Shown here: piece after piece, positions 7,114 through 39,411 of the stretch
Layout: each line of letters starts with the position of its first letter
Numbering within the stretch: the stretch's first letter is position 1
From: a virus
Reading direction: 5' to 3' (one strand)
Length of the DNA: 43,134 nucleotides
IMG/VR virus record: IMGVR_UViG_3300021479_000035
Coordinates: 1 to 43,134 of that record
Position numbers and translations under genes: made by a program
The notes under the pieces: model-generated
Databases searched by the model: none
The model's input: the letters and a program-made list of their open reading frames with translations, nothing else
What the model was told of the DNA's origin: nothing

Positions 7114-7337
7114 GACGCGAAGACAAATACGTCGAGCCAGACACTAAGAAACAGGGTGCGCTGATCGATAAATGGTTTGCTGGCAAGGGCTCAGTGAACG
7201 CCAAGCGAGAAGTCCCATCTGCTTCAAAAACAAGGCCAGAACCTAAGCCAAAAGCCCCAGGCGAAACATTTCTTGGTGCGCCGATACGCAAGGTAATGGG
7301 CAAAGGGAAAGTCCATTATGGTGGCAGCAGTGGTTGA
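7110..7337 (+). CDS. Small basic phage protein sharing C-terminal motif with its neighbour
   Basis: The product has 75 residues and no recognised domain. It is rich in Lys, Pro and Arg. Near the C-terminus it carries ETFLGAPIRKVMGK, matching EKFLGASKRKVMGK of the preceding gene, so at least the ends of the two genes are related. The start is in an ATGA overlap, and the last 20 bases overlap the lysozyme gene start at 7318. It may be a peptide that binds nucleic acid or a virion partner. Confidence 0.65.
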   Translation: MRREDKYVEPDTKKQGALIDKWFAGKGSVNAKREVPSASKTRPEPKPKAPGETFLGAPIRKVMGKGKVHYGGSSG

Positions 7338-11319: not shown

Positions 11320-11495
11320 CACTGTTTCCTATATTTGATTAATTTGGCTTGTGCTTCTGAACTCTGCTGCAGATCAGGCAAATCATCAGTTGTCCAGTTT
11401 TTCTCGGCAATTCGGATTGCCTCTTCTTCGGTTTCAGCCTCAACGTCCATTTCTATACGGCCTTTCACCTCAAATTTCACTCTGAATTCTGTCAT
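11319..11495 (-). CDS. Small acidic protein following integrase
   Basis: The product has 58 residues, beginning MTEFRVKFEVKGRIEMDVEA, then EEEAIRIAEKNW. A two-strand plus helix pattern of this kind (FEV-G---V-VEAET-EEAI--A) occurs in many tiny phage and bacterial proteins of unknown role. Its ATG overlaps the integrase stop (ATGA), so the two are co-translated. A better-looking continuation lies in the +1 frame after the stop. Confidence 0.65.
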   Translation of the reverse strand: MTEFRVKFEVKGRIEMDVEAETEEEAIRIAEKNWTTDDLPDLQQSSEAQAKLIKYRKQ

Positions 11496-12514
11496 TTTGC
11501 CACCTTAATCTCGTGCACCGTTTTAATCTCCAGCGCCTCGGCCGCGTCCCTCAGAAAATCAGGCGAAAACTTAACATAGATCCTGGAGGTAATGCGACTA
11601 TCGCTGTGGCCGAGGAAGGCTGCAATTCTATCCATACTAACTCCCGCTTCGGCCATCCAGGATGCAGCGCTGTGTCTGAATACGTGAGCGGTGACCCAGG
11701 GCAGATCACAACGCTTTCCAGCGGCCGCCAGTCCCTTCTTGATGCTTTTGACCGGTTTACCATCCCACTCCACCACGAAATCACTCAGTGCGCCTCTTTT
11801 GGCCTCTTGGAGGGCCGCCATGAGGGTACGGTTAATAGGAACTGATGCCCGCCTTTTGCTTGTAGAAAGTCCATTCTGAGCGGTCAGATCGATTATCCGC
11901 CTCTCTAGATCCACTTGGTTCCACTTCAGCCCTAGCAATGCACCAATACGTGCTCCTGTTGTCATGGCTGCAATAACGCATAGTCGTATGTGCGGGGTGG
12001 AGCACGATGAAAGGAACCGGCTCGCTTGTTCCCGTGTCAAACGCAAATCCCGAGGTGGCGACATAGCCGGGCGGGATATGTAGGGGGCCTTGGCTATCAG
12101 GTTCTTTTTCTCTGCCCACTTCAGTGCACTCCTGAGTCGCCCGAGCTCCGTCGCAATCGTTCCGTCCTTACGGCCTCCGGCTCTGCGTTCAGATACATAA
12201 GCCACGCAAGTGTCATCCCTGATACTGGCCGCGGCCATAGTGCCAAAGAAAGGCAAGACAGAGCGCCCTTCAAAGCCCATAGTCTGAAATGAAGGTTTTC
12301 CCTTAAGCGTCTCGCGGTATCCATTCCAAACATATTCCACCGTTATGGTTTTTGGCCTGTTGGCGATTTCGTATTGCTCGGCAAAGGTTCTGAGTGCTCG
12401 CTCGGCAACATCACGATCTTTGGTGCGAAGTGAGACACGGCAGACCCGGCCTCGAATTCGATATGCGGCATAGTACCATCCTCGATACAAGACTTTACGG
12501 AACTTAGGACACAT
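11492..12514 (-). CDS. int: Tyrosine-type site-specific integrase
   Basis: The product has 340 residues. The N-terminal arm-binding part (residues 8-50, YRGWYYAAYRIRGRVCRVSL) is followed by a SAM-like core-binding domain (about 55-140) and the catalytic domain. Catalytic residues are visible: Arg189 in TTGARIGALLGLKW, Lys220 in LSTSKRRASVPI, His277 and Arg280 in HVFRHSAASW, His303 in AFLGHSD and the nucleophile Tyr313 in SRIYVKF. The length is normal. It recombines attP at 10763-10810 with a host tRNA-Thr gene. Its first 172 bases overlap the excisionase-like gene in another frame. Confidence 0.95.
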   Translation of the reverse strand: MCPKFRKVLYRGWYYAAYRIRGRVCRVSLRTKDRDVAERALRTFAEQYEIANRPKTITVEYVWNGYRETLKGKPSFQTMGFEGRSVLPFFGTMAAASIRDDTCVAYVSERRAGGRKDGTIATELGRLRSALKWAEKKNLIAKAPYISRPAMSPPRDLRLTREQASRFLSSCSTPHIRLCVIAAMTTGARIGALLGLKWNQVDLERRIIDLTAQNGLSTSKRRASVPINRTLMAALQEAKRGALSDFVVEWDGKPVKSIKKGLAAAGKRCDLPWVTAHVFRHSAASWMAEAGVSMDRIAAFLGHSDSRITSRIYVKFSPDFLRDAAEALEIKTVHEIKVAK

Positions 12515-13650: not shown

Positions 13651-14007
13651 TCAGCATGCCGGTCTTCCCATCCATTGGCCAAGGAGCCCGATGGAACACG
13701 GTGGTAGTCCATGCTGACGCCTCATTTCGTTGATGATTGCTTCCGTGTTGCGCTGATTGGCAATAATTCCATTCCAATCCGTTCCGCCGCCATACCCGCC
13801 GCGTGCGGCATAGTAGCTATTCCAGAATGTCTCCGTTGAGTTCTGGGCATGCGCTGGCATGAGCATACCGAATAGTGCCAAGGCATCGACAAGCATTACA
13901 AATAGCACAGCTCTTATCACTATTTTTTTGCTCATTCCGAGGGCCAGTCCTGACATGATCAAGACAGCAGGCCCAATTACAAGAACATAGAACACTAACA
14001 TTTTCAT
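13651..14007 (-). CDS. Membrane or exported protein with AHAQ cleavage-like site
   Basis: The ATG at 14007 overlaps the stop of the Gp157 gene (TGATG), giving 118 residues. Two hydrophobic segments are present, MLVFYVLVIGPAVLIMSGLA and VIRAVLFVMLVDALALFGML, the second ending PAHAQ, which resembles a signal peptidase site. After it comes a soluble part with GGYGGGTDWNGII and two Cys (PPCSIG and a C-terminal Cys). It may be exported to the periplasm or stay anchored. Unknown function; possible superinfection or surface role. Confidence 0.6.
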   Translation of the reverse strand: MKMLVFYVLVIGPAVLIMSGLALGMSKKIVIRAVLFVMLVDALALFGMLMPAHAQNSTETFWNSYYAARGGYGGGTDWNGIIANQRNTEAIINEMRRQHGLPPCSIGLLGQWMGRPAC

Positions 14008-16456: not shown

Positions 16457-16891
16457 TCAGTCGTGAATTTCGCCAGCTACTCGGAGCAAAGATCGCAAAA
16501 GTTCAAGCTCAAGTTCTGCAGTCCGGCCGCTCGACACAAGAGCTTTCCGAGCTGCGAGAAATTCTAAAATCGCTTCCGTCAGAATCCGGCGAGCCCCAGG
16601 GGAGCGCACGGGAATCCGGTAAAGATCCAATATTGCCGCGACGACGGCTCTAATGATTGGCCTGAGCATCGCCATAGGTTCGTCGTTATTCGAGATCCCT
16701 TCGCCATGCAGGAGCCAAACCGCCCGGGTGCCGAACGCCAGCGCATATTTCTCAGCGGTCTCCACCCGATAATTATTCTGGCCATTTTCGTGGGATGCAT
16801 AGGTTGATGGCGTCCAGCCAAACCTTGTTGCAGCTGCACGGGCTGATCTAAAACCTGCAGCTTGACGGGCCTGACGGAGGCGAAAGTTCAT
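16457..16891 (-). CDS. XRE-family repressor (CI-like)
   Basis: The start is the ATG at 16891; a GTG three codons upstream is possible. The 144-residue product has an HTH at about residues 4-65: NFRLRQARQAAGFRSARAAA, then FGWTPSTYASHENGQNNYRV and AEKYALAFGTRAVWLLHGEG. This is the cI/XRE fold of short phage repressors. The C-terminal half is helical, Ala/Arg/Leu-rich, probably for dimerisation, and lacks a LexA-type peptidase, so RecA-driven self-cleavage is not expected. It is divergent from the RHH gene across overlapping promoters. Confidence 0.85.
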   Translation of the reverse strand: MNFRLRQARQAAGFRSARAAATRFGWTPSTYASHENGQNNYRVETAEKYALAFGTRAVWLLHGEGISNNDEPMAMLRPIIRAVVAAILDLYRIPVRSPGARRILTEAILEFLAARKALVSSGRTAELELELLRSLLRVAGEIHD

Positions 16892-16938
16892 TGATCCCAC
16901 GGTTGCAGGTCAAATATTTTCCAGGCTCCAGGTCAATC

Positions 16939-20388: not shown

Positions 20389-20670
20389 GTGCCAGGGTTC
20401 CAAAAAGGGCACCCTCGCGTAGGCGGTCGCCAGCTTGGTAGCCTGAATAAATCCACAGCTGACATCAAGGCGCTAGCGTTCCAGCATTGCCCGAAAGCCA
20501 TCGCGTTTCTGGTCTCGGTTATTGAGGCAAAAACTGAACCTACCGTCACCAAGATCGCAGCTGCCAAGGAGTTGCTTGATCGCGGAATCGGCCGAGCTGC
20601 GCAACCGCAAACTGGTGCCGATGGCGATGGCCCGGTTGAGATCAAGCATATCATCAGTTGGCAGAAATGA
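20389..20670 (+). CDS. Putative small terminase subunit / DUF5681-like protein
   Basis: GTG start with GGTGAG about 6 bases upstream; 93 residues. The N-terminus FQKGHPRVGGRQLGSLNKST is the KG--GGR--GS-NK signature found in small packaging-associated proteins. It is followed by a helical part with CPKAIAFLVSVI and AAKELLDRGIGRAAQP. Position at the head of the packaging/structural block supports the small terminase, although TerL lies 4 kb away. The 82-base gap upstream (20307-20388) has no convincing promoter. Confidence 0.45.
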   Translation: MPGFQKGHPRVGGRQLGSLNKSTADIKALAFQHCPKAIAFLVSVIEAKTEPTVTKIAAAKELLDRGIGRAAQPQTGADGDGPVEIKHIISWQK

Positions 20671-20679
20671 GGTAGGTTT

Positions 20680-21972
20680 ATGAGCATTCTCGGCATGTGG
20701 ATTTTTGTGGCGGTTATGTGGATTTGTGTTTTGTGCTATGCGATGATTGTACTCCGGCCGCAGAGAATGCCATTGTGGGTTGCATGGTTGGCGGTTGTAT
20801 TTGTTATTGGTTTTCCGTTGTTGGCGCTTGCGCAAAGCCCAACTGTTTCCAACCCGACTGGAGGCGTAAGCGTTCCCTATAGCATCACAGCTGGTGCAAC
20901 GGTGAATTTCACAGGTTCTACACCTCCGCCGCCCCCGCCACCTCCTCCTCCACCGCCATCCGGCACATTCACGGTTAGCTCCTGCACACAGCAGATCCCC
21001 GACACTGCGACATTCTACACGGATAGCCCTTTGGCTCCTCTCGAGAGCGATGTTGCGGGAGCACCTCCATTCTGGATCCAGACGCAGAGCGGCAGCAAAT
21101 ATTGGCTGTTCCAGGGCCCATACAATGCGCCAACCGGCACTCCGCCAGGCTACAACGTGCTGGCCTTCAATGGCAGCACAACTTGGTTTTCAAACCCGAA
21201 GGCTGTGCCTGGCCTATTTTGGGTCATGGGCGTGTTCGAGGATCCGGCCAGCAAGCGGCTGATTGCAGTTCTACACACGGAGGAAGCAGACGGTGGCACC
21301 AACGATTTTAATGTCATGCGGCTCAGTCTGGCAACTGCCGCCTCTAACTCTGTGGCCAATCCAGTCGGAAGTGCTGGCAACCCATGGATCGTGCTGGGCA
21401 ATATTGTCAAATTTACCGACGAATCAACCATGCAGGCCAATGGCTTCAACATCGGAGGCACCAACCCGATAGTCGGTCAAGACGGCTACCTCTACGTCAT
21501 GTACACCGGCACCTACCTCGCTAGAGCCTCCATTAGCTCCGTACTGGCTGCTGCGGTGAATGGAACAGCTGCGCCGTGGATGACCTATTCGACTGATGGG
21601 ACATTTGATTCGCTGTCGATAAACGGAACCGCCACTTGGGCGCATATCAGCGATCCAACGAACGAAATTGGCGCCTCTCACACTGCCGTGGCGTTTTCCA
21701 TCTATGACAAGCACTTCTATACGACTGAGAACAATTATCTGTTTAATTCTACAGATCTCATCCATTGGACCAATGTGGGTCAGTTCTTGGGCGTGTGCGG
21801 AGTCTACAATGCGGCGACGGATGGGCCGTTCTATTACAGCATCTTCGACCCAAACACGCCGCTCTACAACCAAGCCACCCAAGTCGGGAAATCGTTCTTC
21901 GTAAATGCGGCGTGGTTCAAGAACGGCGCCAATGGCAACGGCTGGGTACAGACTGGCATCACCCTCAACTAG
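20680..21972 (+). CDS. Exported protein with polyproline linker and propeller-like domain
   Basis: The product has 430 residues. Two hydrophobic segments (residues 5-25 and 31-49) end in LALAQ, a signal-peptidase-like site, followed by SPTVSNPT shared with the next two genes. A run of twelve prolines (about 82-93) separates a C-terminal domain with KYWLFQGPYNAPTG, DGYLYVMYTGTYL, YSTDGTFDSL, SHTAVAFSIYDKHFYTTEN and STDLIHWTNVGQF. Repeated strands with DLIHW are typical of glycoside hydrolase 43/sialidase-like propellers, but I cannot assign catalytic residues. An exported, possibly glycan-binding protein in a phage packaging block is unexpected. Confidence 0.65.
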   Translation: MSILGMWIFVAVMWICVLCYAMIVLRPQRMPLWVAWLAVVFVIGFPLLALAQSPTVSNPTGGVSVPYSITAGATVNFTGSTPPPPPPPPPPPPSGTFTVSSCTQQIPDTATFYTDSPLAPLESDVAGAPPFWIQTQSGSKYWLFQGPYNAPTGTPPGYNVLAFNGSTTWFSNPKAVPGLFWVMGVFEDPASKRLIAVLHTEEADGGTNDFNVMRLSLATAASNSVANPVGSAGNPWIVLGNIVKFTDESTMQANGFNIGGTNPIVGQDGYLYVMYTGTYLARASISSVLAAAVNGTAAPWMTYSTDGTFDSLSINGTATWAHISDPTNEIGASHTAVAFSIYDKHFYTTENNYLFNSTDLIHWTNVGQFLGVCGVYNAATDGPFYYSIFDPNTPLYNQATQVGKSFFVNAAWFKNGANGNGWVQTGITLN

Positions 21973-21985
21973 GAGCTTTAGTTCA

Positions 21986-22195
21986 ATGCGCCCCTATCAT
22001 CCAATTAGTTATGTCTACGCCTTGATATTTGGTATTATTGCAAGCTTTTCCCTAGTTGTCGGGCTGCTTGTTGCTAGCGGCGCGCATGCGCAATCACCTA
22101 CGATCAGCAATCCTACGGCCACGATTACCAATTGCGTCGGCTCGCCAGTAACGTCATGTCAGGTCACCTGGCATGGCGGTATCACTCTTAACTGA
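21986..22195 (+). CDS. Short exported protein, empty-cassette version of its neighbours
   Basis: AGGAG precedes the ATG by 10 bases; 69 residues. The signal peptide (ALIFGIIASFSLVVGLLVAS, then GAHAQ) is followed by SPTISNPTATITNCVGSPVT and SCQVTWHGG, nearly identical to the segment in the next gene. It ends GITLN exactly as the 430-residue protein does (TGITLN). It therefore looks like a product of recombination between the two neighbours, with the domain between lost. The mature part has two Cys that could pair. Confidence 0.6.
   Translation: MRPYHPISYVYALIFGIIASFSLVVGLLVASGAHAQSPTISNPTATITNCVGSPVTSCQVTWHGGITLN
22091..22176 (+). repeat. Duplicated signal-proximal module, copy 1
   Basis: About 86 bases encoding QSPTISNPTATITNCVGSPV and SCQVTWHG. 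A diverged copy lies at 22397-22486 in the next gene. The leader with the ribosome-binding site, TAGGAGCTTTAG, is also repeated before each gene (21971 and 22291), so the duplication includes the translation start region. Confidence 0.7.
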
Positions 22196-22303
22196 TTTAC
22201 CTATGCCGGGGCTATCGGACTGACCGGTCATCGATTCGGGGTAAGGAATGGTAGTTGCGATGAAAGTTCGCAACCGGCACCACTCTCATAGGAGCTTTAG
22301 CTT

Positions 22304-23116
22304 ATGCGATCAAATTCACGTCTAATTGGACAGGGAATAGCAATATTTGTTTTCGCGGTGCTAACAACACTTGGTGCATATAGGCTTGCCGATGCACAAT
22401 CAGCCCCCACGATTAGCAATCCCACGGCGACGATCACCAATTGTGTGGGCTCGCCGGTTACGTCTTGCCAGGTCAATTGGAATGGCCTGCTCAATGTCAG
22501 CGGCGGCACTGGCACCGGCGGTTCTCCCCCGCCAGCTGGCGGATATGTGTTTGATAAAGCCGCTAACACTGCCAACCTTTTGTCTTTTCCTATTTCCACC
22601 TCTGGGCCGAATGAGCTCGTCTTTGTGTTTTCTGTTTTTCAAGGAGCTACAAGCTGTGCGATATCCGATACATCTGGCCTGACATGGACACCGGTCATTT
22701 CCAAGGTCGCCTCGAATGAGTGTGCTTGGGTGGCCAAAGCACCTACCGCGCTATCAGCCGATACGATTACGGTCACCGCTCCCGGCAACCTCTACAATTT
22801 CAACGCCTGGGCGGCCTTCAGTGGCGGCGCTCAGACCCATGATACCAACTCCAGCGTTCCGGCTTCGAGTTTTGGCAAGTCCGTGATGGTTTCGCCAAAT
22901 GGCGCAACCGGTCTTGCCATTGGATTGGTCAATCCGTCCGTTGGCGGGGCAGCAAGCTTTGTTCCCGATACCGGTTTCACCAATGCTACAACGACTGGCC
23001 CGCTCAACCCGCTCAGCGTCGAATATCAGATATTCAGCACCAAACCGGCATCTCTGACAATCGGCGCCAATGGCGGGAATAGCGTTGGCGCAGTGATGGC
23101 TGACATTTGGGATTGA
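22304..23116 (+). CDS. Exported beta-rich protein sharing the duplicated module
   Basis: The product has 270 residues. The signal peptide (IAIFVFAVLTTLGAYRLADA) is followed by the shared module (APTISNPTATITNCVGSPVT), a Gly/Pro linker and a C-terminal beta-sandwich-like domain: FDKAANTANLLSFPISTSGP, then LVFVFSVFQGATSCAISDTS, NAWAAFSGGAQTHDTNSSVP and ASLTIGANGG. That domain resembles the phage and bacterial NELV(V/I)-F-S---a--isDs-G-tWt surface domain, usually a structural or adhesive sandwich. AGGAG precedes the ATG. It is probably displayed outside the inner membrane; the partner is unknown. Confidence 0.65.
   Translation: MRSNSRLIGQGIAIFVFAVLTTLGAYRLADAQSAPTISNPTATITNCVGSPVTSCQVNWNGLLNVSGGTGTGGSPPPAGGYVFDKAANTANLLSFPISTSGPNELVFVFSVFQGATSCAISDTSGLTWTPVISKVASNECAWVAKAPTALSADTITVTAPGNLYNFNAWAAFSGGAQTHDTNSSVPASSFGKSVMVSPNGATGLAIGLVNPSVGGAASFVPDTGFTNATTTGPLNPLSVEYQIFSTKPASLTIGANGGNSVGAVMADIWD
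22397..22486 (+). repeat. Duplicated signal-proximal module, copy 2
   Basis: About 90 bases encoding AQSAPTISNPTATITNCVGS and PVTSCQVNWNG. It is similar over its length to 22091-22176 with mostly silent differences, so the protein is under selection or the duplication is fairly recent. Confidence 0.7.
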
Positions 23117-23122
23117 TCATTC

Positions 23123-23428
23123 ATGAACCCTCTGAGGTTGCTTCTTTTATGGCTGTGCCTAGTTGCAGCTCTCCTTATCGGCGCTTATTGGAATGGAGTT
23201 TTTGCCCAGCCCTTTGGCTGGGAGCCGGAGCTTGAACTTCGGACATGGCATCATCATCGCTGGTGGAAGCATCACGACTGGCATCATGATGCTTGGCGTG
23301 AACATCATCGTCGGAGCGATTGTTGCTGGAACACCCATAACCATGAACACGAATGGCGCTTTCTGCATCAACACGGCGATGAGCATAAGCATTGGCATCG
23401 CGGGGATGGTGAAAGGGATTGGCGATGA
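23123..23428 (+). CDS. Exported His/Trp-rich small protein
   Basis: The product has 101 residues. The signal peptide MNPLRLLLLWLCLVAALLIG ends near FAQP. The mature part is extraordinary: about 17 His and 8 Trp in some 70 residues, in motifs such as TWHHHRWWKHHDWHHDAW and HEHEWRFLHQHGDEHKHWH. The stop overlaps the next ATG (ATGA), like most junctions here, which supports this frame. A second long frame (23163-23438) covers the same DNA. A periplasmic metal-binding role is suggested by composition but not shown. Confidence 0.5.
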   Translation: MNPLRLLLLWLCLVAALLIGAYWNGVFAQPFGWEPELELRTWHHHRWWKHHDWHHDAWREHHRRSDCCWNTHNHEHEWRFLHQHGDEHKHWHRGDGERDWR

Positions 23429-23745
23429 AACCGATTGATATTACTTACAAAACAGCTGCAGAGCTGGAGATAACCGAGGAAGAGCGGGAAAGCCTGACCG
23501 CGGTTATTGACAAGCTTCTTGGTCTTCCACTGCCTAAGTTTCAAATGAGGCATCGTTGTGAATGCATCGAGGGCCAAGCAGGCTTGTACGCTAATGGCTT
23601 AGTCCATAGCCCCCCTCTCAACAGGCTATTTTTCCCATTCGGTAGCCAAGGCGCAAGCGCTTGCTGGGATCACTGCAAACATCCATGGGATGCCACGCCA
23701 GCTGAAGCGGCCAAGGCCGTTGTGCGCTTTCTGCAGGGTGAATGA
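23425..23745 (+). CDS. Small Cys-containing protein, unknown
   Basis: The start is the ATG at 23425 (GGGA upstream), giving 106 residues: a helical acidic N-terminus (ITEEERESLTAVIDKLLGLP), a Cys/His part (MRHRCECIEG and later ACWDHCKHPWD) and a helical end (AEAAKAVVRFLQGE). The paired Cys motifs suggest metal binding. No signal peptide, so it stays in the cytoplasm. It overlaps the next gene by ATGA. Confidence 0.6.
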   Translation: MKPIDITYKTAAELEITEEERESLTAVIDKLLGLPLPKFQMRHRCECIEGQAGLYANGLVHSPPLNRLFFPFGSQGASACWDHCKHPWDATPAEAAKAVVRFLQGE

Positions 23746-24134
23746 TGGACCGGATAATGTCGGATTATCCTGGCCTATTCGGTTTGTCTGGCAATGTCGA
23801 AGATCGGCGCAATCCTTATGGCAGGGTTATGACGCCTCAGCTGGCACAAGTTCAGGCAGAAGTGCCGATGGTGCCGCAATACAATGAGCAGCTGAGCAGT
23901 TATGGCCAGGGGAGTATTCCCGTTGGGCGGGAAGCGGAGCCAGGTTATGGTCCAGTTATACCATCGGTCATGCCTCAGAACCAGCGGCCGCTGATGCAGG
24001 GGTTTCAGCCACCGCCGCAACCTCCGCCAATTCAGAACATGAATTTTCAGGGAACTGCTCTTGAAAAGCTTGGGGCGTCATGGCCCGGTAATCCTATCCC
24101 AATCAATCTTATCTCAGCACTGAGTGGTGGTTAA
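23742..24134 (+). CDS. Pro/Gln-rich low-complexity protein
   Basis: The product has 130 residues. Near the N-terminus is YPGLFGLSGN, related to PSGLFGMAGN of the next gene. The centre is PQ-rich (PPPQPPPIQN), and the end ALEKLGASWPGNPIPINLIS is mildly hydrophobic. It has no recognised domain and is probably disordered. Its composition matches the internal virion proteins at the other end of the late block. Confidence 0.55.
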   Translation: MMDRIMSDYPGLFGLSGNVEDRRNPYGRVMTPQLAQVQAEVPMVPQYNEQLSSYGQGSIPVGREAEPGYGPVIPSVMPQNQRPLMQGFQPPPQPPPIQNMNFQGTALEKLGASWPGNPIPINLISALSGG

Positions 24135-24159
24135 TTAATGATGAGAAAGTGTGCAATAA

Positions 24160-24588
24160 ATGTGGCCTAGCGGACTGTTTGGCATGGCTGGTAACCCCAA
24201 TCAGCCTGGCGGCAATCTTTCGCCGGTTGCTAATGCTTTTCTCGGAATGGGATCGCCGCAAACTCAGTCAAACTCATTCATGCCTGCTCCGCAGCCTGGG
24301 ATAGCCGGTCAGATGCAACCTGGCGCAATGCGGCTAGGGATGCCCACCCAGACGCCTCCAGCTGTTCAGGCTCCTGCCCCCCAGGCAATGGCTCAAGGCC
24401 TCTCCTCGCCTTCGCCAGCGGCTACGATTGGCCCTCCGGCTGCCCCAATGAGTACGGGGGATCATTCTTTTAGTACTGGATATCCGGCACCCAATGATGC
24501 TGCGACGATAGCGGCGACTATGGCTAGGTACGGCGGCGTCTTCAGGGGCGCCGCCTTGCCGGGAGGGGGAGGTTTCAGGCAACCATGA
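24160..24588 (+). CDS. Gly/Pro/Met/Gln-rich low-complexity protein
   Basis: The product has 142 residues, starting MWPSGLFGMAGNPNQPGGNL, with repeated P-Q, AP and MxPG segments and a helical patch (NDAATIAATMARYGGVFRGA) near the end. It is a paralogue of the preceding gene at least in its GLFG(L/M)(S/A)GN start. It is likely disordered; a virion or assembly role is inferred. It overlaps the next gene by ATGA. Confidence 0.55.
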   Translation: MWPSGLFGMAGNPNQPGGNLSPVANAFLGMGSPQTQSNSFMPAPQPGIAGQMQPGAMRLGMPTQTPPAVQAPAPQAMAQGLSSPSPAATIGPPAAPMSTGDHSFSTGYPAPNDAATIAATMARYGGVFRGAALPGGGGFRQP

Positions 24589-24779
24589 TGATTTATTCTA
24601 GAGCTTTTTGGGAGGGGTTTATGGATGGTTTCAGCGGGATCTGGCTTCTCGTTCCCTTGTTTCTGCTAATCTATTTTATCCTTGAACGGACATCCCGCGG
24701 GCGAAGATATCACGCTAGATTACTAGCCGAGAGCCTCAAGCGGAATGATCCAAGAAATCCGCTCCGAGATCCCGTATAA
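24585..24779 (+). CDS. Small membrane protein before TerL
   Basis: The product has 64 residues: FWEGFMDGFSGIWLLVPLFL followed by LIYFILE forms one membrane segment, and a basic tail (RTSRGRRYHARLLAESLKRN) follows. It overlaps the TerL gene by 35 bases. The single span with a cationic C-terminus could be a holin-type or accessory membrane protein; no proof. Confidence 0.6.
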   Translation: MMIYSRAFWEGFMDGFSGIWLLVPLFLLIYFILERTSRGRRYHARLLAESLKRNDPRNPLRDPV

Positions 24780-26082
24780 GCCGAGGTCTTGGTTTGTACC
24801 ATTTCACGATAGAACTCAGCGATTTGCTATTGGTGTTGCTCATCGCCGTTGCGGCAAGACTGTTGCTTGCGTCAATGACATGATCTACAGGGCGGCTATT
24901 AGCCCGCTCACTTTCTACAAGGCCGCTTATATTGCTCCCTATCTGAGGCAGGCCAAGGATGTCTCTTGGACGTATTTTAAGCACTACGGCGAACCGCTCA
25001 TTGCCAGAGTCAACGAATCAGAGTTATGGATTGAGCTGTTTAATGGGGCACGCATCCGCATCTACGGGGCAGACAACGCCGATGCTCTCCGAGGCGGATA
25101 TCTTGATGACGTTGTCCTCGACGAATATGCGGATATGGACCCCAGCGTCTGGGGCAGTGTCATTCGGCCGATGCTTGCCGATAGAGCCGGTACAGTAACC
25201 TTTATCGGCACGCCTAAGGGCCGCAACAACTTCTTTGAAATGTGGTGCCGCGCTAAGGAAGATCAGAAGTGGTTTAGCTTTCTTTGGCGCGCAAGCGAGA
25301 CTGGTGTGCTACCGGAAAGCGAGCTGCAGCTGGCTCGCGGCGACATGACTCAGGAGCAATATGAACAAGAATTCGAATGCAGCTTCGAAGCCGCCATCCT
25401 TGGAGCCTACTACGGTCGGGAGATGGCTGAGTGCGAGAGATCAGGACGAATTAAGACAAATCTTGAGGCAATTGCGGGATCGCCTATCCATACTGCCTGG
25501 GACTTCGGTAATGGTTCAAATATGGCCGTCTGGGTTCTCCAAGTTGGAACAGATGAGCGATCTAGACCCATGTTGCTCATTCACGATTTTATCCAATCCG
25601 CAAACTGGTACTTTGACGACTATCTCGCTGAGGTGAACAAGCGTGGCTACAACGGCACTGATTATGTTCCTCATGACGCTCGTGTGCCTAGTTTTGAAAC
25701 AGGCAGAACCAGAATTGAAACTATGGTTGCTGCTGGCCGCAAGCCCGTGCTGGTTCCTGATCATCACGTCGATGACGGGATAAATGCTGTCAAGCTGACC
25801 TTTCCACGGATGATCTTCAATGGAACTGCTTGCAAGATCGGTATTGAGGCTCTCAGACAGTATCGCGCAGACTGGGACGAAAAAGCCAGGGTTTTTAGGA
25901 CGGTGCCGCGTCATGATTGGTCGTCTCATCCTGCGGATGCTATGCGCTATCTCGCGATGGCTTGGCGAGAGCTGATTGCTACGAAGGATGAGCCACCCGC
26001 GCCGCTGTTCAAATCTCTTGGTGATCTGACGTTTGACGAATTCTTCGAGGTTGAGGAAACACTTCCAACAGTGAGAATATGA
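24745..26082 (+). CDS. terL: Terminase large subunit
   Basis: The product has 445 residues, a full-length packaging motor. The ATPase carries Walker A AHRRCGKT (32-39), Walker B VVLDEY (123-128) and the coupling motif FIGTPKG (153-159). The nuclease domain has the acidic residues Asp253 (AWDFGNG), Asp311 (VPHDAR) and Asp398 (SHPADAM). It cuts and pumps DNA into the prohead through the portal encoded at 28846. It overlaps the preceding membrane gene and, by ATGA, the beta-helix gene that separates it from the portal. Confidence 0.95.
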   Translation: MIQEIRSEIPYKPRSWFVPFHDRTQRFAIGVAHRRCGKTVACVNDMIYRAAISPLTFYKAAYIAPYLRQAKDVSWTYFKHYGEPLIARVNESELWIELFNGARIRIYGADNADALRGGYLDDVVLDEYADMDPSVWGSVIRPMLADRAGTVTFIGTPKGRNNFFEMWCRAKEDQKWFSFLWRASETGVLPESELQLARGDMTQEQYEQEFECSFEAAILGAYYGREMAECERSGRIKTNLEAIAGSPIHTAWDFGNGSNMAVWVLQVGTDERSRPMLLIHDFIQSANWYFDDYLAEVNKRGYNGTDYVPHDARVPSFETGRTRIETMVAAGRKPVLVPDHHVDDGINAVKLTFPRMIFNGTACKIGIEALRQYRADWDEKARVFRTVPRHDWSSHPADAMRYLAMAWRELIATKDEPPAPLFKSLGDLTFDEFFEVEETLPTVRI

Positions 26083-28754
26083 TGAATTTTAGAGACTTGC
26101 TTGGCATAGCATTAGGCGCCGTAATTGGCGTCTTTCTTTTTGGGCAGGATGCTTTCGCGACTGTCAACGCGCCAGCGCACTATCCATCGCCGCTGACCGT
26201 TAATCCTTCCCGAACCTTCTACGTCTCCCCTAATGGTTCTGACGTGGGCGGTTGTGGAGGCGGGCCAATCGGCGCAGGCAGCAATTGCGCGACGCCGTGG
26301 GGAGCCAACAACAACATTGCTCTGACTGGCGGTGATACCGTTATGGTTCAGGGCTCGGCGCCAACAGAAACGACACTTGGTTCGTCTGGGTGGATCAACT
26401 ACAACATGGGTGGAGGGGTTACCTTCACGGATTCCGGAACGGCCAACACGCCAACTGGATACATCAACTATATCTGCACCGTAAACCATGGGTGCAAGTG
26501 GACTTGCAACAATGCTGCTTCGGATGGTTTTGCTTGCTTGAATCTGACCGGGAATTTCATTGCCTTCGACGGCATGGAAATCGATGGTGTAAACATCCAA
26601 GGCTACAACGGCTATAACAACAACAATACAAATACTTACAACGCTCCCGGTCAGCTGTTCCGCTCCAGCGGCCACCACCACATGCATCTGAACGGCATCT
26701 ATCATGGCTCCGGGGGCGGGTTCGGTTCGAGTGTCGGAACCGACTACGAATATGTCTTTGCTACTGAGCTATATGATTTTGCTGGCGTTAACAGCTGTCA
26801 CACTTCTGCATACGGGCCTGCTGCCATCAATGTGATCGGCGGCTATGTTGCTTCCGGCACGTGGGACAATCTGCCGAACCATTATCAGCTTATCGGCAAT
26901 GTCATTCATGATAGCGGAGAAACGACTGCGGAGCCCGCGGTTTCCTGTGCAGGTCAGCCGACATATCACACAGACGGGAATTGCATCTCTATCGATCATT
27001 GGTCTCAGAATGGTTATCCATACGGCGCGCTTATCGCCTATAACCTGCTCTACAATTGCGGTGGTCGCGGGATAGAGGTCAATAGTCCTACCAATGTGAC
27101 GATGATTAACAACACCGTCTGGAATGATTGCATTGATGCGACCTTTAATACTGGCACTCAGGGCGGGTGCGGGATGGCCGAAGTTGGCAGCAGTAATTTG
27201 TCTGGAACCACGGCTACCTGGAAGAATAACATTTTTTTCCGTACCGCATCTGCATCAGGAGATGCTTCGGGAAGCTATCAAACTGGCGGCTTTTCGATGC
27301 GGCTTGATGGTGGTACGGATGCCGGAATCACCAACAATGTCACGTTTGATCAAAAAGCGGGCGGTGCTTCGGTGGCATCTTTTTCCGCAGCAGACAATGC
27401 TGGCAACGTCTCGAGAATTATAGCCAATAATACCACGGGGACCGATCCGAGGCTCACCAATCCTCCGCATCAGACTTTGAGTGATTTCCAGCCTGTAGGT
27501 GGCGACACTATAGTCATTGGCAAGGGCGCCTCAACTTCGAGCATAACTCCTGTGATCGCATTTGTCACTCCTGACGGCAATCAGCCCTCCAATCCGCCAA
27601 CCATTGGTGCCTTTGTTCAGGGTTCTACTCCACCTCCCGCGCTTGGCCCTCCAGTCAGCATCAACGCTGGCGGTCCGGCTGTTGGCAGCTTTATTGCAGA
27701 CGCCGGGTCCACTGGCGGTCTCACGATTGCAAACAACCCCTCTGGAGCGGTTGATACGAGCCTAGTTGCCAATCCGGCGCCAACGCTAGTTTACCGGTCT
27801 GAGCGCTATGGCAATTTCAGCTATCAGGTAAACAATGCTGTTCCTGGGAAAACCTACGTTGTGAATGTTCACGAAACCGAAGACGTTGACAATGGCGCCA
27901 ATATCCGTGTCATGGACATTTCCATTAACGGAACTATCGTGTTCCCTTCGTTTGATATCTTTGCTGCTACCGGAGCACTTCATAAGGCTATAGTCAAAAC
28001 AGCCAACGCGGTTGCGGACACCAACGGAAACATCACTATTGCTTTTGCTCCGCATGCTGGCAGCACCGACACCAGCGCAAAAGTAGACGGCGTGGAGGTT
28101 CTCAATCCCATCCCGGCCCCGCCGTTGCCAGGCAATTTTAGCTACCAGACCGGCCGCTGGTATACGCTGGACCTGCATATTCCCTCCTCGGTTGCTCCGG
28201 TTGCTCATGCGGCCAACACGATCCGCTGCGCGCCTGCCGGTATGCGCAACACGGCGACAATCAACAATGTTTCAGCTCGGATCTACAACGCGGATGCAAG
28301 CGGTCATCTGGCTTTTGGCATCTACGGCAACGGGCCTGACAACCGTCCGGCAAATCTAGTGACCACTTCGGCCACGATGGCGACGACGCCGTCAGGGGCC
28401 GAGCCAATTGCAGCACTAGGTGCAAATGTTCAGGGAGGTCCTAGCGGCACTGGAGTGACTGACAAGTTCTGGGTCTGCTCCAACACAGATAGCGCTACGG
28501 CCTCCTTTGCCTCCGTCAGCCCAAGCGGAGGATTAACCTCCACTTTGCTAGGATCCACGACGCCAGCGAATATCCTGCAGACTAGCGGCACAAGTGCGGT
28601 CATCAGCCATCTTAGCTGCGCAGGCGCGGCGTGCAATGGCGGCACGAGCACTTTTGCCAGTGGTTTCCCGGCCAATCTTGCCGGTTCGACATGGACAGAG
28701 CAGACGACCGTGGATATGCCTATGATAGCGGTTCAATTCATATCGGTGCCATGA
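26079..28754 (+). CDS. Exported beta-helix protein with malectin-like domain
   Basis: The product has 891 residues. Residues 1-28 form a signal peptide (LLGIALGAVIGVFLFG, then QDAFA). Residues about 46-515 form a right-handed beta-helix: TFYVSPNGSDVGGCGGG, FIAFDGMEIDGVNI, HYQLIGNVIHDSGE, GIEVNSPTNVTMINNTVWND and WKNNIFFR, as in polysaccharide lyases and phage depolymerases. Residues 526-677 look like a malectin carbohydrate-binding domain (SINAGGPAVGSF, YRSERYGNFSYQV, VDGVEVLNP). Residues 684-891 resemble a fibre C-terminal domain (GRWYTLDLH). It could be a tailspike depolymerase, but the signal peptide argues for secretion. Confidence 0.75.
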   Translation: MMNFRDLLGIALGAVIGVFLFGQDAFATVNAPAHYPSPLTVNPSRTFYVSPNGSDVGGCGGGPIGAGSNCATPWGANNNIALTGGDTVMVQGSAPTETTLGSSGWINYNMGGGVTFTDSGTANTPTGYINYICTVNHGCKWTCNNAASDGFACLNLTGNFIAFDGMEIDGVNIQGYNGYNNNNTNTYNAPGQLFRSSGHHHMHLNGIYHGSGGGFGSSVGTDYEYVFATELYDFAGVNSCHTSAYGPAAINVIGGYVASGTWDNLPNHYQLIGNVIHDSGETTAEPAVSCAGQPTYHTDGNCISIDHWSQNGYPYGALIAYNLLYNCGGRGIEVNSPTNVTMINNTVWNDCIDATFNTGTQGGCGMAEVGSSNLSGTTATWKNNIFFRTASASGDASGSYQTGGFSMRLDGGTDAGITNNVTFDQKAGGASVASFSAADNAGNVSRIIANNTTGTDPRLTNPPHQTLSDFQPVGGDTIVIGKGASTSSITPVIAFVTPDGNQPSNPPTIGAFVQGSTPPPALGPPVSINAGGPAVGSFIADAGSTGGLTIANNPSGAVDTSLVANPAPTLVYRSERYGNFSYQVNNAVPGKTYVVNVHETEDVDNGANIRVMDISINGTIVFPSFDIFAATGALHKAIVKTANAVADTNGNITIAFAPHAGSTDTSAKVDGVEVLNPIPAPPLPGNFSYQTGRWYTLDLHIPSSVAPVAHAANTIRCAPAGMRNTATINNVSARIYNADASGHLAFGIYGNGPDNRPANLVTTSATMATTPSGAEPIAALGANVQGGPSGTGVTDKFWVCSNTDSATASFASVSPSGGLTSTLLGSTTPANILQTSGTSAVISHLSCAGAACNGGTSTFASGFPANLAGSTWTEQTTVDMPMIAVQFISVP

Positions 28755-28849
28755 TGAATGGCCTTCCGCCGTTTGTACTCTTAATTGTTTTTTATTTTGT
28801 AGGCGTTTTTGTGGGCTATCTCTGGGGGAGCAGAAATCCCATTAAATGA
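28751..28849 (+). CDS. 32-residue membrane peptide before portal
   Basis: The ATG overlaps the stop of the beta-helix gene and the stop overlaps the portal ATG (ATGA at both ends). The peptide MMNGLPPFVLLIVFYFVGVF ends VGYLWGSRNPIK, one membrane helix with a basic tail. The double coupling supports a real gene. Function unknown. Confidence 0.55.
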   Translation: MMNGLPPFVLLIVFYFVGVFVGYLWGSRNPIK

Positions 28850-31158
28850 CCTACGAAGCCAGCTCTACCGCAGATAACACTGATTCAGAAAGTGATCGCG
28901 GAGTAGAGTATTGGCTAACTGAGCTTGCTAAGGCACAGCGCGCTCCAGGGATGAAATCCTGGAATGAGCGGTGCAATTCCATTCATCGGCTCTATCGCGA
29001 TGACCAGACAGCGCGGCGCCGCAAGCGCCGTTATGCTATGCTCTGGTCGAACATGGAGACCATGAAACCGGCAGCTTACACCAAGCCGCCAGTTGCAGTT
29101 GTCCAGCGGCGCTATAGAGACAGCGATCCGATTGGCCGGATGGCGGTAGAAGTGCTCGAGAGGGCAATTAATTTCACATTCGAGACGAATGACTTTGATA
29201 ATCGCTTTAAGCAAGTACGTGATGATTTTCTGCTTTACGGCCGTGGCGTTGCCCGTGTCTCTTATGACCCTGTTCTTTCCACCGTGCCGGATTATGACGA
29301 TGAATCCGGCCTCGATGTTACCAGTATGGTTGGTCCTGATCAGGAAGCAACTGAACGGAAAGAGCACGCCGAAGAAGAGCAAGACCCAGGCGAAGTGCTT
29401 CAATTCGAAAACGTCAAAATAAGGTTCGTACAGCGGCAAGATTTTGTGCATCAGGAGGCCCGAACCTGGGATGAGGTTGACTGGGTTGCTTTTCGCGGAT
29501 TTCTTAACCGCGAGGGTCTTGTTGAGAGGTTTGGTGAGAAAATTGGAAACCAGATTTCCGTCAACGTCTCAGAAACCTATCGCAAGGACGACTATGATTT
29601 ATCTTCAGTAAGCGACAAGGCGGAGATATGGGAAATCTGGGATCGCTGTCATGAGGAAGTGCTTTGGATATCGAAGGGCTTCAAAGAGGTTTTAGATCGT
29701 GGATCGCCCTATCTTAAGCTCGAAGATTTCTATCCCTGTCCGCGCCCGGCTTATGGTACGCTTACGAACGAGTCCTTGGACCCCATACCGGACTATGTCT
29801 ACTATCAGGATCAGGCTGAGGAAATTGACCGTCTTACAGCCCGTATTGGAGCACTCACTGATGCCCTTAAGCTTGTTGGCTTCTATCCGGGAGGCCCGCA
29901 AGGCGACGGCGCGCCTGAAATCGAAAAGGCGCTAACCCCCGGTTATGAAAACCGCATGATTGCGGTGAAATCCTGGGATGCCTTTAAACAGGGCGGAGGA
30001 GGCCAAGGAGCGCCTATCGTCTGGTTGCCCATAGAACAAGTCGCAGAAATCCTGAAGGGCTGTGTGGAACTCCGCAAGCAGCTTGTGGACGACGTGAACC
30101 AGATCTATGGAATCAGTGACATCATGCGCGGCGACGGTCAGGCGCAGGAGACTGCGACAGCGCAGAGCATCAAAGCCCAGTACGGCTCTATTCGGATCAG
30201 AACACGTCAGCAGGAGCTAGCGCGCTTCTGCCGCGATATTTCCCGGATGACCGGCGAGATTATAGCGACACATTTCCAGCCTGAGACGCTGCTGAAAATG
30301 GTTAACATCAAGCTGCCAACTAGGCAGGATGTTATGATGCTGCAGCAAAAGCAGGCCTTAATGGCTGCTGCGCAAGCTGGACGTCAAGCTGGAATGATGG
30401 CTGCCCGCCAAGGGCTTTCAGCCAGTCCTGGCCAGGCACTTGGACAGGCTCCCCCTGCTGGTCCGCAGCTATCTATGGCGCCTGCAGGCGAGCAATCACA
30501 GCCTAGTGGTGGGTTTTCCTCGCAGGCGCCTTCTAATTCTGGTCCGACGATCGATGACGTAATGGAGCTGCTTAGGGACAATGTGCTAAGGCACTTCAGG
30601 ATTGATATCGAAGCTGATTCAACCATTGTTGGCGATGAAAGCCAGGAAAGGCAGGATCGCAATGAGTTTATTGCAAGCATTACAAAATTCATGGAGGTCT
30701 GGGGGCCTATGGTCGCCGCGGAACCTGCTTTATCTCAGTTGGCTGGTGGTCTTCTCCAGTTTGGCGTGCGCGCTTATCGCGTTGGCCGTGAGTTAGAGGA
30801 ACTGATCGAAGAGACTATTCAAAAGGCTCAGCAAATGCCTCCGCAACCGCGTGGCAAGGGTGACCAGTCCAAAGTGCAAGCTGAGATGATCAAGCTCGAG
30901 GGGACGAAGGTCAAGAGCCAGGCTGAGCTGCAAAACACTCAGATGGAGTCCCAGCAGCATGCATTCGAAGCCGGACTTAAGATGCAAACTGAGGCGATGA
31001 AACAGCGTGCCGATCAGGCCAAGATTGGAACAGAATACGCGAAGGTTGGCGCGGCGCACGCGAAAGCTGGTGCTGATCACGTAAAGGCGCAAGCTGATAT
31101 CATAAAGGCCCTCCAGCCGCCTGCGCCTGCGAGACCACAACAAGGAAACAAGCAATGA
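28846..31158 (+). CDS. Portal protein (podovirus type)
   Basis: The product has 770 residues, the size of large podovirus portals. The N-terminal body carries SWNERCNSIHRLYRDDQTAR, RRYAMLWSNMETMKPAAYTK, FETNDFDNRFKQVRDDFLLY and EIWDRCHEEVLWISKGFKEV. The stem region includes QIYGISDIMRGDGQAQETAT. Beyond residue 500 are Gln/Ala-rich helices and a long coiled coil (residues about 660-760) rich in Gln, Lys and Glu, as in the barrel of P22-like portals. It forms the dodecameric DNA gate for TerL. Position before scaffold and capsid genes fits. Confidence 0.88.
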   Translation: MTYEASSTADNTDSESDRGVEYWLTELAKAQRAPGMKSWNERCNSIHRLYRDDQTARRRKRRYAMLWSNMETMKPAAYTKPPVAVVQRRYRDSDPIGRMAVEVLERAINFTFETNDFDNRFKQVRDDFLLYGRGVARVSYDPVLSTVPDYDDESGLDVTSMVGPDQEATERKEHAEEEQDPGEVLQFENVKIRFVQRQDFVHQEARTWDEVDWVAFRGFLNREGLVERFGEKIGNQISVNVSETYRKDDYDLSSVSDKAEIWEIWDRCHEEVLWISKGFKEVLDRGSPYLKLEDFYPCPRPAYGTLTNESLDPIPDYVYYQDQAEEIDRLTARIGALTDALKLVGFYPGGPQGDGAPEIEKALTPGYENRMIAVKSWDAFKQGGGGQGAPIVWLPIEQVAEILKGCVELRKQLVDDVNQIYGISDIMRGDGQAQETATAQSIKAQYGSIRIRTRQQELARFCRDISRMTGEIIATHFQPETLLKMVNIKLPTRQDVMMLQQKQALMAAAQAGRQAGMMAARQGLSASPGQALGQAPPAGPQLSMAPAGEQSQPSGGFSSQAPSNSGPTIDDVMELLRDNVLRHFRIDIEADSTIVGDESQERQDRNEFIASITKFMEVWGPMVAAEPALSQLAGGLLQFGVRAYRVGRELEELIEETIQKAQQMPPQPRGKGDQSKVQAEMIKLEGTKVKSQAELQNTQMESQQHAFEAGLKMQTEAMKQRADQAKIGTEYAKVGAAHAKAGADHVKAQADIIKALQPPAPARPQQGNKQ

Positions 31159-35259: not shown

Positions 35260-36261
35260 ATGGCTTCCCCCTTAGTCACAACTATTGACTGGGGTGATGT
35301 TGTCACGACTACGCTTGAGAACAGGTCTCGAAAACTAGCAGATAACATCACCAACAATAACGCGTTGCTGACGTTTCTGAAAACTCGCGGCAAAACTGAC
35401 ACCTTCAATGGTGGTCGCGAGATTATGCAGGAACTCGAATACGCGATGAACCAAACGTTTCAATGGTATTCAGGCTATGAGAACCTGAACGTATCATTGA
35501 ATGACACGATGACGGCTGCCCGCTTCCCGATTAAGCAGGCGTCAATCTCCATCACGATCAGCGGTCTCGAGGAACTCCAGAATGATTCTGAAGAGCGCAT
35601 GATCGATCTGATCAGGGCCCGTATCAATGTCGCCGAGGCTACCTTCTGGAATCAGCTCTCAGCTGGTGTCTATTCAGATGGAACCGCTTTTGGCGGCAAA
35701 CAGATGAATGGCCTCGCGCTTCTTGTTGCCAAGGTGCCGACGTCAGGCGTCGTTGGCGGCATTGACCGCGGCTCCCAGGTTTGGTGGCGCAATTTTGCCG
35801 TCAATGCGAATACGGACGCACGCGGTGTTGTGACCAGCTCTAATGTTCAGAGCTACATGAACAGCACGACCGTTAACCTTAAACGCAATACCGAAGGTGT
35901 AGACCTTATTGTTGCGGATAACAACTTCTACCTCAGCTATCTCGCCTCGCTGCAGACAATCCAGCGTATCACCTCCGAGAAAGGCGAGCATGGAATAGGC
36001 TTTACGGGTCTCAAGTACTACGGGGCCGGTAAGGAAATCGATGTTGTCCTCGATGGTGGCAAGAACGGTCAGATCAGCGCCAATACCATGTATTTCCTCA
36101 ACACCGAATACTTTATGTATCGGCCGCATGCGCGCCGGAACTTCAAGGTAGTCGGTGGGGATCGCGCCAATGTTAACCAAGACGCGATTGTGAGAATCAT
36201 GGCCTGGGCAGGGAACATGACTATCTCTAACTCTTTCCTGCAAGGAGTGCTCTGGCAATGA
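35260..36261 (+). CDS. Major capsid protein
   Basis: The product has 333 residues, directly after the scaffold gene and with AGGAG before the ATG. Visible features are DWGDVVTTTLENRSRKLADN, GGREIMQELEYAMNQTFQWY, a helix with ISGLEELQNDSEERMIDLI (spine helix type), the long central QVWWRNFAVNANT and a C-terminal TYFMY-like strand (NTMYFLNTEYFMYRPHARRN). This fits an HK97-fold coat. It ends overlapping the decoration gene by ATGA, as expected for proteins needed in similar amounts. Confidence 0.85.
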   Translation: MASPLVTTIDWGDVVTTTLENRSRKLADNITNNNALLTFLKTRGKTDTFNGGREIMQELEYAMNQTFQWYSGYENLNVSLNDTMTAARFPIKQASISITISGLEELQNDSEERMIDLIRARINVAEATFWNQLSAGVYSDGTAFGGKQMNGLALLVAKVPTSGVVGGIDRGSQVWWRNFAVNANTDARGVVTSSNVQSYMNSTTVNLKRNTEGVDLIVADNNFYLSYLASLQTIQRITSEKGEHGIGFTGLKYYGAGKEIDVVLDGGKNGQISANTMYFLNTEYFMYRPHARRNFKVVGGDRANVNQDAIVRIMAWAGNMTISNSFLQGVLWQ

Positions 36262-38680: not shown

Positions 38681-39411
38681 TGGCTCTCATAGACATCATC
38701 AAAAGAGCTGCAGTTCGCTGCAATATTCCAACTCCCAGCGCAGCTTTTTCGTCTACTGACCCTTTGATTATTCAAATGGTCAATTTTGCCAATGATGCTG
38801 CGCAAGATATGATCGAACGATGGGACTGGCGCAACCTCAAAATAGGGGCTCAGGTTATAGGTGATGGTACTACAACTCTTTTTAGTCTGCCTCCTGATTG
38901 GCTTCGTGTTGATCCTTCTGACAAGTCCCCCGTGGGCGCCTTTGTTTCTAATTTATTCCCTATTATTCCTTTGGCAGGTCCCGTAAATGACGAAGACCTG
39001 AACGCCTATAAGAACTTCCCGGCTATGCCAGTGCGTCCAATGTGGCGGCTGATTGGAGGTGCGCTGGAGATATGGCCAGCGCTGGCGCTGAATGAGACGG
39101 TGACGTTCAACTACTTTTCCAAGAATTTCGTCATCAAGTCAGATGGGTCCTCTAGACAGCCACAATGGACCGCAGACGATGACATTGGACTTGTTCCTGA
39201 AGACACGATCATGAAAGGAGTTGTCTGGCTCTGGAAGAATGCCAAGGGGCTCGATTATGCGGAAGAGATGCGTATGTATGAGTTATCTCTTACCCGCCAA
39301 GCAGGCCAGGAGAGCCAGGAGCGCTCTGTTGCTACGGCCTTCCCATCTTACTATCCAGGCATGGATTGGTGGCCTGGCGCGATTAATGACCAGTCAACAC
39401 AGCAACCATAA
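38680..39411 (+). CDS. Head-tail adaptor / connector protein (gp4-like)
   Basis: The product has 243 residues. It starts with a helix (LIDIIKRAAVRCNIPTPSAA), then NFANDAAQDMIERWDWRNLK and strand-rich TTTLFSLPPDWLRVDPSDKS, ending in a helical part (EDTIMKGVVWLWKNAKGLDY). The initial A-----------R-WDWR... followed by a beta-rich part and GVVWLWK-AKGLDYAE-M matches podovirus tail adaptor proteins of the P22 gp4/tubular A kind that bind the portal. One-base overlap with the nozzle gene. Confidence 0.8.
   Translation: MALIDIIKRAAVRCNIPTPSAAFSSTDPLIIQMVNFANDAAQDMIERWDWRNLKIGAQVIGDGTTTLFSLPPDWLRVDPSDKSPVGAFVSNLFPIIPLAGPVNDEDLNAYKNFPAMPVRPMWRLIGGALEIWPALALNETVTFNYFSKNFVIKSDGSSRQPQWTADDDIGLVPEDTIMKGVVWLWKNAKGLDYAEEMRMYELSLTRQAGQESQERSVATAFPSYYPGMDWWPGAINDQSTQQP

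What the first reader, a model, noticed from the sequence alone, without database searches (positions are those of the whole stretch)
20680..28849. A block of exported-protein genes inserted between TerS, TerL and portal
Five proteins in this stretch (starts 20680, 21986, 22304, 23123, 26079) begin with Sec-type signal sequences ending in LALAQ, AHAQ, ADAQ, FAQ and DAFA. Virion proteins are assembled in the cytoplasm and normally lack these. One product combines a beta-helix and a malectin-like domain, another a propeller-like domain, suggesting glycan binding or cutting. The hypothesis is that the phage exports a set of surface or exopolysaccharide-modifying proteins, for lysogenic conversion, superinfection exclusion or biofilm escape. 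They may instead be virion proteins whose hydrophobic N-termini anchor them.
Basis: partly seen in the sequence, partly recalled or inferred. Interest (0 to 1): 0.78.

Follow-up and report, generated by a model that had tools for sequence, protein, structure and literature searches.

The report
Exported cargo inside phage packaging operon
A temperate phage known only from sequence carries, between the genes that package its DNA, a run of genes whose proteins bear secretion signals and cysteine pairs, so they are probably shipped out of the infected cell late in infection; relatives keep the export signals at the same place while changing the cargo.

Summary
Between TerS (20389), TerL (24745) and portal (28846) lie five genes with Sec-type N-termini. 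Four score well for cleavage; 22304 has a strong core but a weak cleavage score. Two are not what they seem: 21986 is a signal plus 34 residues, and 23123 is frameshifted at the signal/mature junction.

Export is supported by comparison, not just motifs. A complete relative (capsid protein 100% identical, synonymous sites strongly diverged) carries an unrelated signal-bearing protein between TerS and TerL, and a 60% identical signal + beta-helix + malectin protein between TerL and portal, whose signal is only 30% identical but still canonical. Distant relatives carry other signal-bearing proteins beside TerL or portal. Mature parts are 3-fold enriched in cysteine. One exported protein has four cysteines where three signal-less homologues have none.

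The genes overlap terL and portal by ATGA and show no independent promoter, so they are probably late genes; this argues against classical lysogenic conversion. Best reading: a late-operon cargo site for Sec-exported, disulfide-bonded, mostly surface- or glycan-directed proteins. Enzymatic function, release and fate (secreted or virion-bound) are not shown. Filed as a new variant of phage cargo genes.

The parts
20389..20670 (+). TerS-like small terminase
   Evidence: phrog_15261 E 6.6e-13; 68% identical in relative G1
20680..21972 (+). Exported protein 1, 430 aa: two hydrophobic segments, LALA|Q, QSPTVSNPT start, poly-Pro linker, unknown (possibly propeller-like) domain
   Evidence: signal scan; alternative start Met30 gives a clean signal; no homologue found
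21986..22195 (+). Exported protein 2, 69 aa: signal (35 aa) plus 34-aa mature peptide with a C-x7-C pair; remnant or minipeptide of a tandem duplication
   Evidence: module comparison; repeated gene end/RBS alignment
22304..23116 (+). Exported protein 3, 270 aa: signal (LADA|Q, weak cleavage score), same C-x7-C module, unknown domain, 4 Cys
22097..22165 (+). Module PTISNPTATITNCVGSPVTSCQV in protein 2
   Evidence: 11 synonymous and 0 non-synonymous differences over 23 codons against 22406-22474 (chance about 5e-7)
22406..22474 (+). Same module in protein 3
23123..23428 (+). Exported protein 4: signal (VFA|Q) in this frame; the coding frame switches to +1 at about 23207 (runs to 23438), i.e. 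a frameshift at the signal/mature junction
   Evidence: codon log-odds over 23207-23418: frame 0 -11.9, +1 frame +14.9
23419..24588 (+). Three genes without signals (23419-23745, 23742-24134, Pro/Gln-rich 24160-24588); the last is shared with G1 (57%)
24585..24779 (+). Small single-TM protein, overlaps the Pro-rich gene (ATGA) and terL
24745..26082 (+). TerL
   Evidence: phrog_2 E 1e-36; 91% in G1, 57% in L003
26079..28754 (+). Exported protein 5, 891 aa: signal 1-27 (DAFA|T), beta-helix (about 46-512), malectin (527-656), C-terminal domain matching a phage family (690-814, phrog_25864); start overlaps terL stop
27657..28046 (+). Malectin domain of protein 5
   Evidence: PF11721 E 3.1e-10, residues 527-656; E 1.6e-15 in the G1 homologue
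28751..28849 (+). 32-aa single-TM peptide whose stop overlaps the portal start
   Evidence: translation (end of ORF 28631-28849)
28846..31158 (+). Portal
   Evidence: phrog_12082 E 4e-204
13651..13935 (-). Sixth probable exported protein, in the leftward region: MSKK...MPAHA|QNSTETFWNSYYAARGG, conserved with its signal in G1

Best explanation
The stretch is a cargo site inside the late packaging operon of an Mx8-capsid-type temperate podophage. Its genes encode Sec-exported, disulfide-bonded proteins directed at the cell surface or surface glycans. They are translated with TerS, TerL and portal late in infection, carried across the inner membrane by the host Sec machinery, cleaved by signal peptidase, oxidised in the periplasm, and released there or at lysis. 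Outside, the beta-helix/malectin protein and its partners bind or cut host or neighbour polysaccharide, which would help progeny leave and spread or keep them from being trapped on debris and siblings. Supported here: the signals, their conservation under cargo turnover, the cysteine signature, the malectin domain, the kinship of the beta-helix to secreted bacterial proteins, and the late-operon layout. Inferred: actual cleavage, disulfides, enzymatic activity, release and benefit.
For: Signals in 5 of 10 block genes versus 1 of 41 others. Complete relative G1 (IMGVR_UViG_3300050821_007750), syntenic throughout, carries a different signal-bearing 687-aa protein between TerS and TerL, and a 60% identical signal + beta-helix + malectin protein between TerL and portal. 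dS in core genes is about 1.1-1.6, so the arrangement is old; the signal is 30% identical yet canonical in both. L003 (TerL 57%) has a signal-bearing Pfam Beta_helix protein starting in the terL stop, and another signal protein after portal. L118, L078 and L159 have signal-bearing proteins after portal, between TerL and portal, and just before TerL. Cys 24/1516 in exported mature parts versus 31/6145 in virion-type proteins, p = 5e-5; even Cys number in 11 of 12 exported proteins versus 13 of 26 controls, p = 0.03. L003's 194-aa protein has four mature Cys, its three signal-less homologues none. Nothing lies between TerL and portal in Mx8, BUCT555 or ppBjS10J-1, and no packaging-region gene there passes the signal scan.
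Against: No trained signal predictor was available, and 22304 fails my cleavage cut. No enzyme family is assigned to 20680, 22304 or 23123. Both structure models are unusable. The C-terminal domain of 26079 matches a phage family of unknown function, which also fits a virion protein. Relatives use the same gap for signal-less appendage-like genes. The 23123 gene has one Cys in its +1 frame and is frameshifted. Late expression is inferred from layout only.
Confidence: 0.57

Rival explanations
1. Lysogenic-conversion morons: the genes are expressed from the prophage and alter the lysogen's surface (receptor masking, superinfection exclusion).
For: The phage has an integrase-like gene (11492-12514, -) and a repressor-like gene (16457-16900, -) (by sequence reading). 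Lambda lom and bor (background knowledge) are exported moron products; lom lies in the late region.
Against: Tight spacing and ATGA overlaps with terL and portal. Promoter-like sites do not exceed shuffles (15 versus 11.4 +/- 3.4), and none lies on the + strand between 19020 and 27485. The host's promoter consensus is unknown.
Confidence: 0.15
2. Virion proteins with hydrophobic N-termini that anchor them in the particle or in the host membrane at entry, never processed by signal peptidase.
For: The same gap holds signal-less appendage-like genes in other relatives (L067, L016, L075, L079, L019). The C-terminal domain of 26079 matches a phage protein family. Homologues of L003's exported protein lie signal-less in the head-gene region.
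Against: AxA cleavage motifs and Cys enrichment; canonical signals kept at 30% identity; cysteines present only in the signal-bearing homologue; the beta-helix half is related to a secreted bacterial protein that has its own signal.
Confidence: 0.12
3. Exported, then virion-bound: the proteins fold and oxidise in the periplasm and decorate particles after lysis.
For: Virion-type neighbourhood and domain sharing with signal-less head-region proteins, together with export features.
Against: I know of no precedent in tailed phages; no shared attachment domain was found between the exported proteins of different phages.
Confidence: 0.12
4. Chance hydrophobic N-termini or mis-called starts in unrelated hypothetical genes.
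For: No trained predictor; one gene is frameshifted and one is a fragment.
Against: About 0.5% random rate; recurrence at the same place in several phages with different cargo.
Confidence: 0.04

Closest known systems
Mx8-type podophage packaging/capsid module (Myxococcus phage Mx8, Stenotrophomonas phage BUCT555, Bradyrhizobium phage ppBjS10J-1)
   Same: Homologous major capsid protein (44-51%) and the same TerL-portal-scaffold-capsid order
   Different: In those phages TerL abuts portal and no packaging-region gene passes the signal scan
Exported morons such as lambda Lom and Bor (from background knowledge)
   Same: Phage-encoded Sec-exported proteins; lom lies among late genes
   Different: Here several genes sit in one apparent operon, overlapping terminase and portal genes, with beta-helix and malectin domains rather than small outer-membrane proteins
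Phage-encoded carbohydrate-active cargo (soil viral chitosanase, PMC9485262; Bacillus phage GH32, PMC4595243)
   Same: Polysaccharide-directed proteins encoded by environmental phages
   Different: The phage GH32 enzymes are reported to lack signal peptides (PMC4595243), and the main text of the chitosanase paper does not mention secretion or export; here signals are the conserved feature
Secreted bacterial right-handed beta-helix proteins (NosD/pectate-lyase-like)
   Same: Residues 198-362 of 26079 match a signal-bearing alphaproteobacterial beta-helix protein, 28% identity, E 1e-9
   Different: 26079 adds malectin and a C-terminal domain that matches a phage family
SAR or signal-peptide endolysins (PMC6116005)
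   Same: Sec-exported phage late proteins
   Different: No muralytic domain in any of the five; the lysozyme-like gene is elsewhere (7318-8007, Phage_lysozyme2)

Membership tests
Sec/SPI-exported protein | n-region, hydrophobic core, A-x-A cleavage site | tested here: met
   Four of five by von Heijne-type scan; 22304 meets the core but not the cleavage cut
Sec/SPI-exported protein | actual cleavage and translocation | not testable with these tools
   needs experiment
Mx8-type podophage head module | homologous capsid protein and TerL-portal-scaffold-capsid order | tested here: met
Malectin domain protein | Pfam PF11721 above gathering score | tested here: met
   40.7 bits against cut-off 23
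Right-handed beta-helix family (PF13229) | profile match above cut-off in 26079 itself | tested here: not met
   no Pfam hit on 26214-27620; only pairwise homology to a PF13229 protein
Five-bladed propeller glycosidase (GH43/GH32-like) for 20680 | profile or fold match | tested here: inconclusive
   no profile hit at E 10; model pLDDT 38.6
Moron / lysogenic conversion gene | own promoter and expression in the lysogen | tested here: inconclusive
   no promoter excess, no + strand site at the start of the block; expression not testable
Virion tail fibre/spike | presence in particles; N-terminal virion-attachment domain | not testable with these tools
   no proteomics; recognisable tail-fibre-like genes lie elsewhere, at 4513 and 5496
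SAR endolysin | muralytic domain | tested here: not met
   no lysozyme, amidase or transglycosylase hit in the five

The most novel reading that the evidence does not exclude
In this phage lineage head- or appendage-type domains have repeatedly been given Sec signals and cysteine pairs, so that phage-type proteins are deliberately exported: either as soluble blockers of receptors and surface glycans, or as periplasm-matured parts that join the particle after lysis. L003's exported 194-aa protein, with three signal-less and cysteine-less homologues, is the clearest case.
Probability: 0.22. Interest if true: 0.85.

Novelty: new variant of a known kind. Interest (0 to 1): 0.6.

Why it matters
Exported phage proteins are usually discussed as isolated morons or as lysis proteins. 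Here the packaging operon itself holds a site that keeps the export property while the cargo changes, in several uncultured phages. If confirmed, it means infected cells secrete glycan-directed phage proteins as part of the late programme. That could affect biofilm and environmental polysaccharide turnover, and it gives a simple search rule (a signal peptide beside TerL or portal) for finding such proteins.

Tried and rejected
Structure prediction of 20680 (single sequence) and 26079 (two sequences) gave pLDDT 39 and 29, so no fold search was run. I suspected that 22304 shares its domain with the signal-less protein 32264, but profile comparison gave a probability of 0.1 percent, so I dropped it. 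Hits of 20680 in alphaproteobacterial genomes lie on or around its low-complexity poly-Pro linker and were discarded. Searches for relatives of 20680, 22304 and 26079 in named phages, and of 20680 and 22304 in viral contigs, found nothing. L129's signal protein before TerL ends in a coiled-coil-like stretch and may be lysis-related; I did not count it. L118's second signal ORF seems interrupted, so its Cys number was not used. Literature searches found no description of this arrangement; the library holds open-licence papers only.
Full report
WHAT THE WINDOW IS. The window is an IMG/VR virus record of 43,134 bp whose first and last 196 bp are 99.5% identical, as in a complete circular or terminally redundant genome. 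It has packaging, portal, scaffold and capsid genes, tail-fibre-like genes at 4513 and 5496, a lysozyme-like gene at 7318, and, by reading the translations, an integrase-like gene (11492, minus strand) and a repressor-like gene (16457, minus strand). The capsid protein is 44-51% identical to those of Myxococcus phage Mx8, Stenotrophomonas phage BUCT555 and Bradyrhizobium phage ppBjS10J-1. I call it an Mx8-capsid-type temperate podophage; the host is unknown.

THE OBSERVATION. TerS, TerL and portal are confirmed by PHROG profiles. Between them lie five genes with signal-like N-termini. No trained predictor was available, so I used a von Heijne-type matrix plus hydrophobic core test. Four are positive. 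22304 has the core but a cleavage score of 2.6, below my threshold of 3.5. Counting 22304 as positive, 5 of 10 block genes are positive against 1 of 41 elsewhere in the window, p = 6e-4. Random proteins of the same composition pass a stricter cut 0.45% of the time, and 28 of 1645 distinct ORFs in all loci do, several of them the genes discussed here.

CORRECTIONS. (a) 20680 has two hydrophobic segments; starting at Met30 it would have a clean signal. (b) 21986 encodes only a signal and 34 residues. Its module PTISNPTATITNCVGSPVTSCQV recurs in 22304 with 11 synonymous and no non-synonymous differences over 23 codons (chance about 5e-7), so the peptide with its cysteine pair has been under constraint in at least one copy. 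The gene end and ribosome-binding site are also repeated, so the block has grown by tandem duplication. (c) 23123 is frameshifted: codon statistics favour frame 0 through the signal and the +1 frame from about 23207. The His/Trp-rich tail in frame 0 is therefore out of frame. Whether this is mutation or assembly error is open.

COMPARISON WITH RELATIVES. The complete relative G1 (IMGVR_UViG_3300050821_007750) is syntenic along its length. TerL is 91%, portal 80-84% depending on the alignment, and capsid 100% identical, but dS is about 1.1-1.6 in these genes, so the two have been apart for long. Between TerS and TerL G1 has an unrelated 687-aa protein with a signal (SSVLA|Q) and pectate-lyase-like N-terminal sequence (the latter by eye; no profile hit). 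Between TerL and portal it has a homologue of 26079 with signal, beta-helix and malectin. Identity is 30% in the signal, 53% in the beta-helix region, 66% in malectin and 75% in the C-terminal domain. Both signals remain canonical. L003 (TerL 57%, portal 50%) carries a signal-bearing Pfam Beta_helix protein whose start overlaps the terL stop, as in the window and G1, and a second signal protein after portal. Further signal-bearing proteins lie after portal in L118, between TerL and portal in L078, and just before TerL in L159. Many other relatives, and the named Mx8-type phages, have TerL abutting portal; no packaging-region gene of the named phages passes the signal scan. Some relatives fill the same gap with appendage-like genes without signals ('appendage-like' is by reading the sequences).

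CYSTEINES. Mature parts of the window's exported proteins hold 24 Cys in 1516 residues against 31 in 6145 for virion-type proteins, p = 5e-5 (23123 left out because it is frameshifted). Cys numbers are even in 11 of 12 exported proteins (the exception is the frameshifted 23123) against 13 of 26 controls, p = 0.03, which is modest. The most telling case is L003's 194-aa protein: four mature Cys, while three signal-less homologues (G1 134 aa, L108 147 aa, L103 154 aa) have none. Two of the four lie in the aligned domain; the other two are in its extra N-terminal part. Gain of a signal with gain of cysteines is what export to an oxidising compartment predicts.

WHAT THE PROTEINS DO. 26079 is the only one of the five with a family: malectin. 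Its beta-helix half matches a signal-bearing alphaproteobacterial beta-helix protein (28% over about 165 residues, E 1e-9; located). Its C-terminal domain matches phrog_25864, unknown function. Nothing convincing was found for 20680, 22304 or 23123. Glycan cutting or binding is therefore an inference, strongest for 26079. Both structure models failed.

TIMING. 20680 starts 9 bp after terS; 26079 overlaps the terL stop; a 32-aa membrane peptide overlaps the portal start. Promoter-like sites do not exceed shuffles, and none on the + strand lies between 19020 and 27485. Layout points to late expression, not to prophage-stage conversion.

VERDICT. A late-operon cargo site for Sec-exported proteins is the best-supported reading. 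Export is well supported but indirect; function, release and any benefit are not shown. It is a new variant of phage cargo genes. The more novel reading, that phage head- or appendage-type domains are converted to exported proteins, rests mainly on L003 and L118.

Noticed in passing
13651-13935 (-): Small probable exported protein in the leftward region (MPAHA|QNSTETFWNSYYAARGG...), conserved with a diverged signal in G1 (95 aa, minus strand).
   Followed up: partly
window 1-196 and 42939-43134: 196-bp terminal overlap at 99.5% identity, so the record is probably complete and circular or terminally redundant.
   Followed up: yes
35260-36261: Capsid protein 100% identical in amino acids to that of G1 despite synonymous divergence of about 1, an extreme constraint.
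   Followed up: partly
24585-24779 and 28751-28849: Two small single-TM proteins interleaved with the exported genes, overlapping terL and portal.
   Followed up: no
L159:59-619: 186-aa signal protein with 10 Cys directly before TerL in a distant relative.
   Followed up: partly
39411-41060: PHROG calls this protein family an amidase (phrog_5107, E 3e-114), but its place suggests a head-tail or tail protein; the label may be wrong.
   Followed up: no
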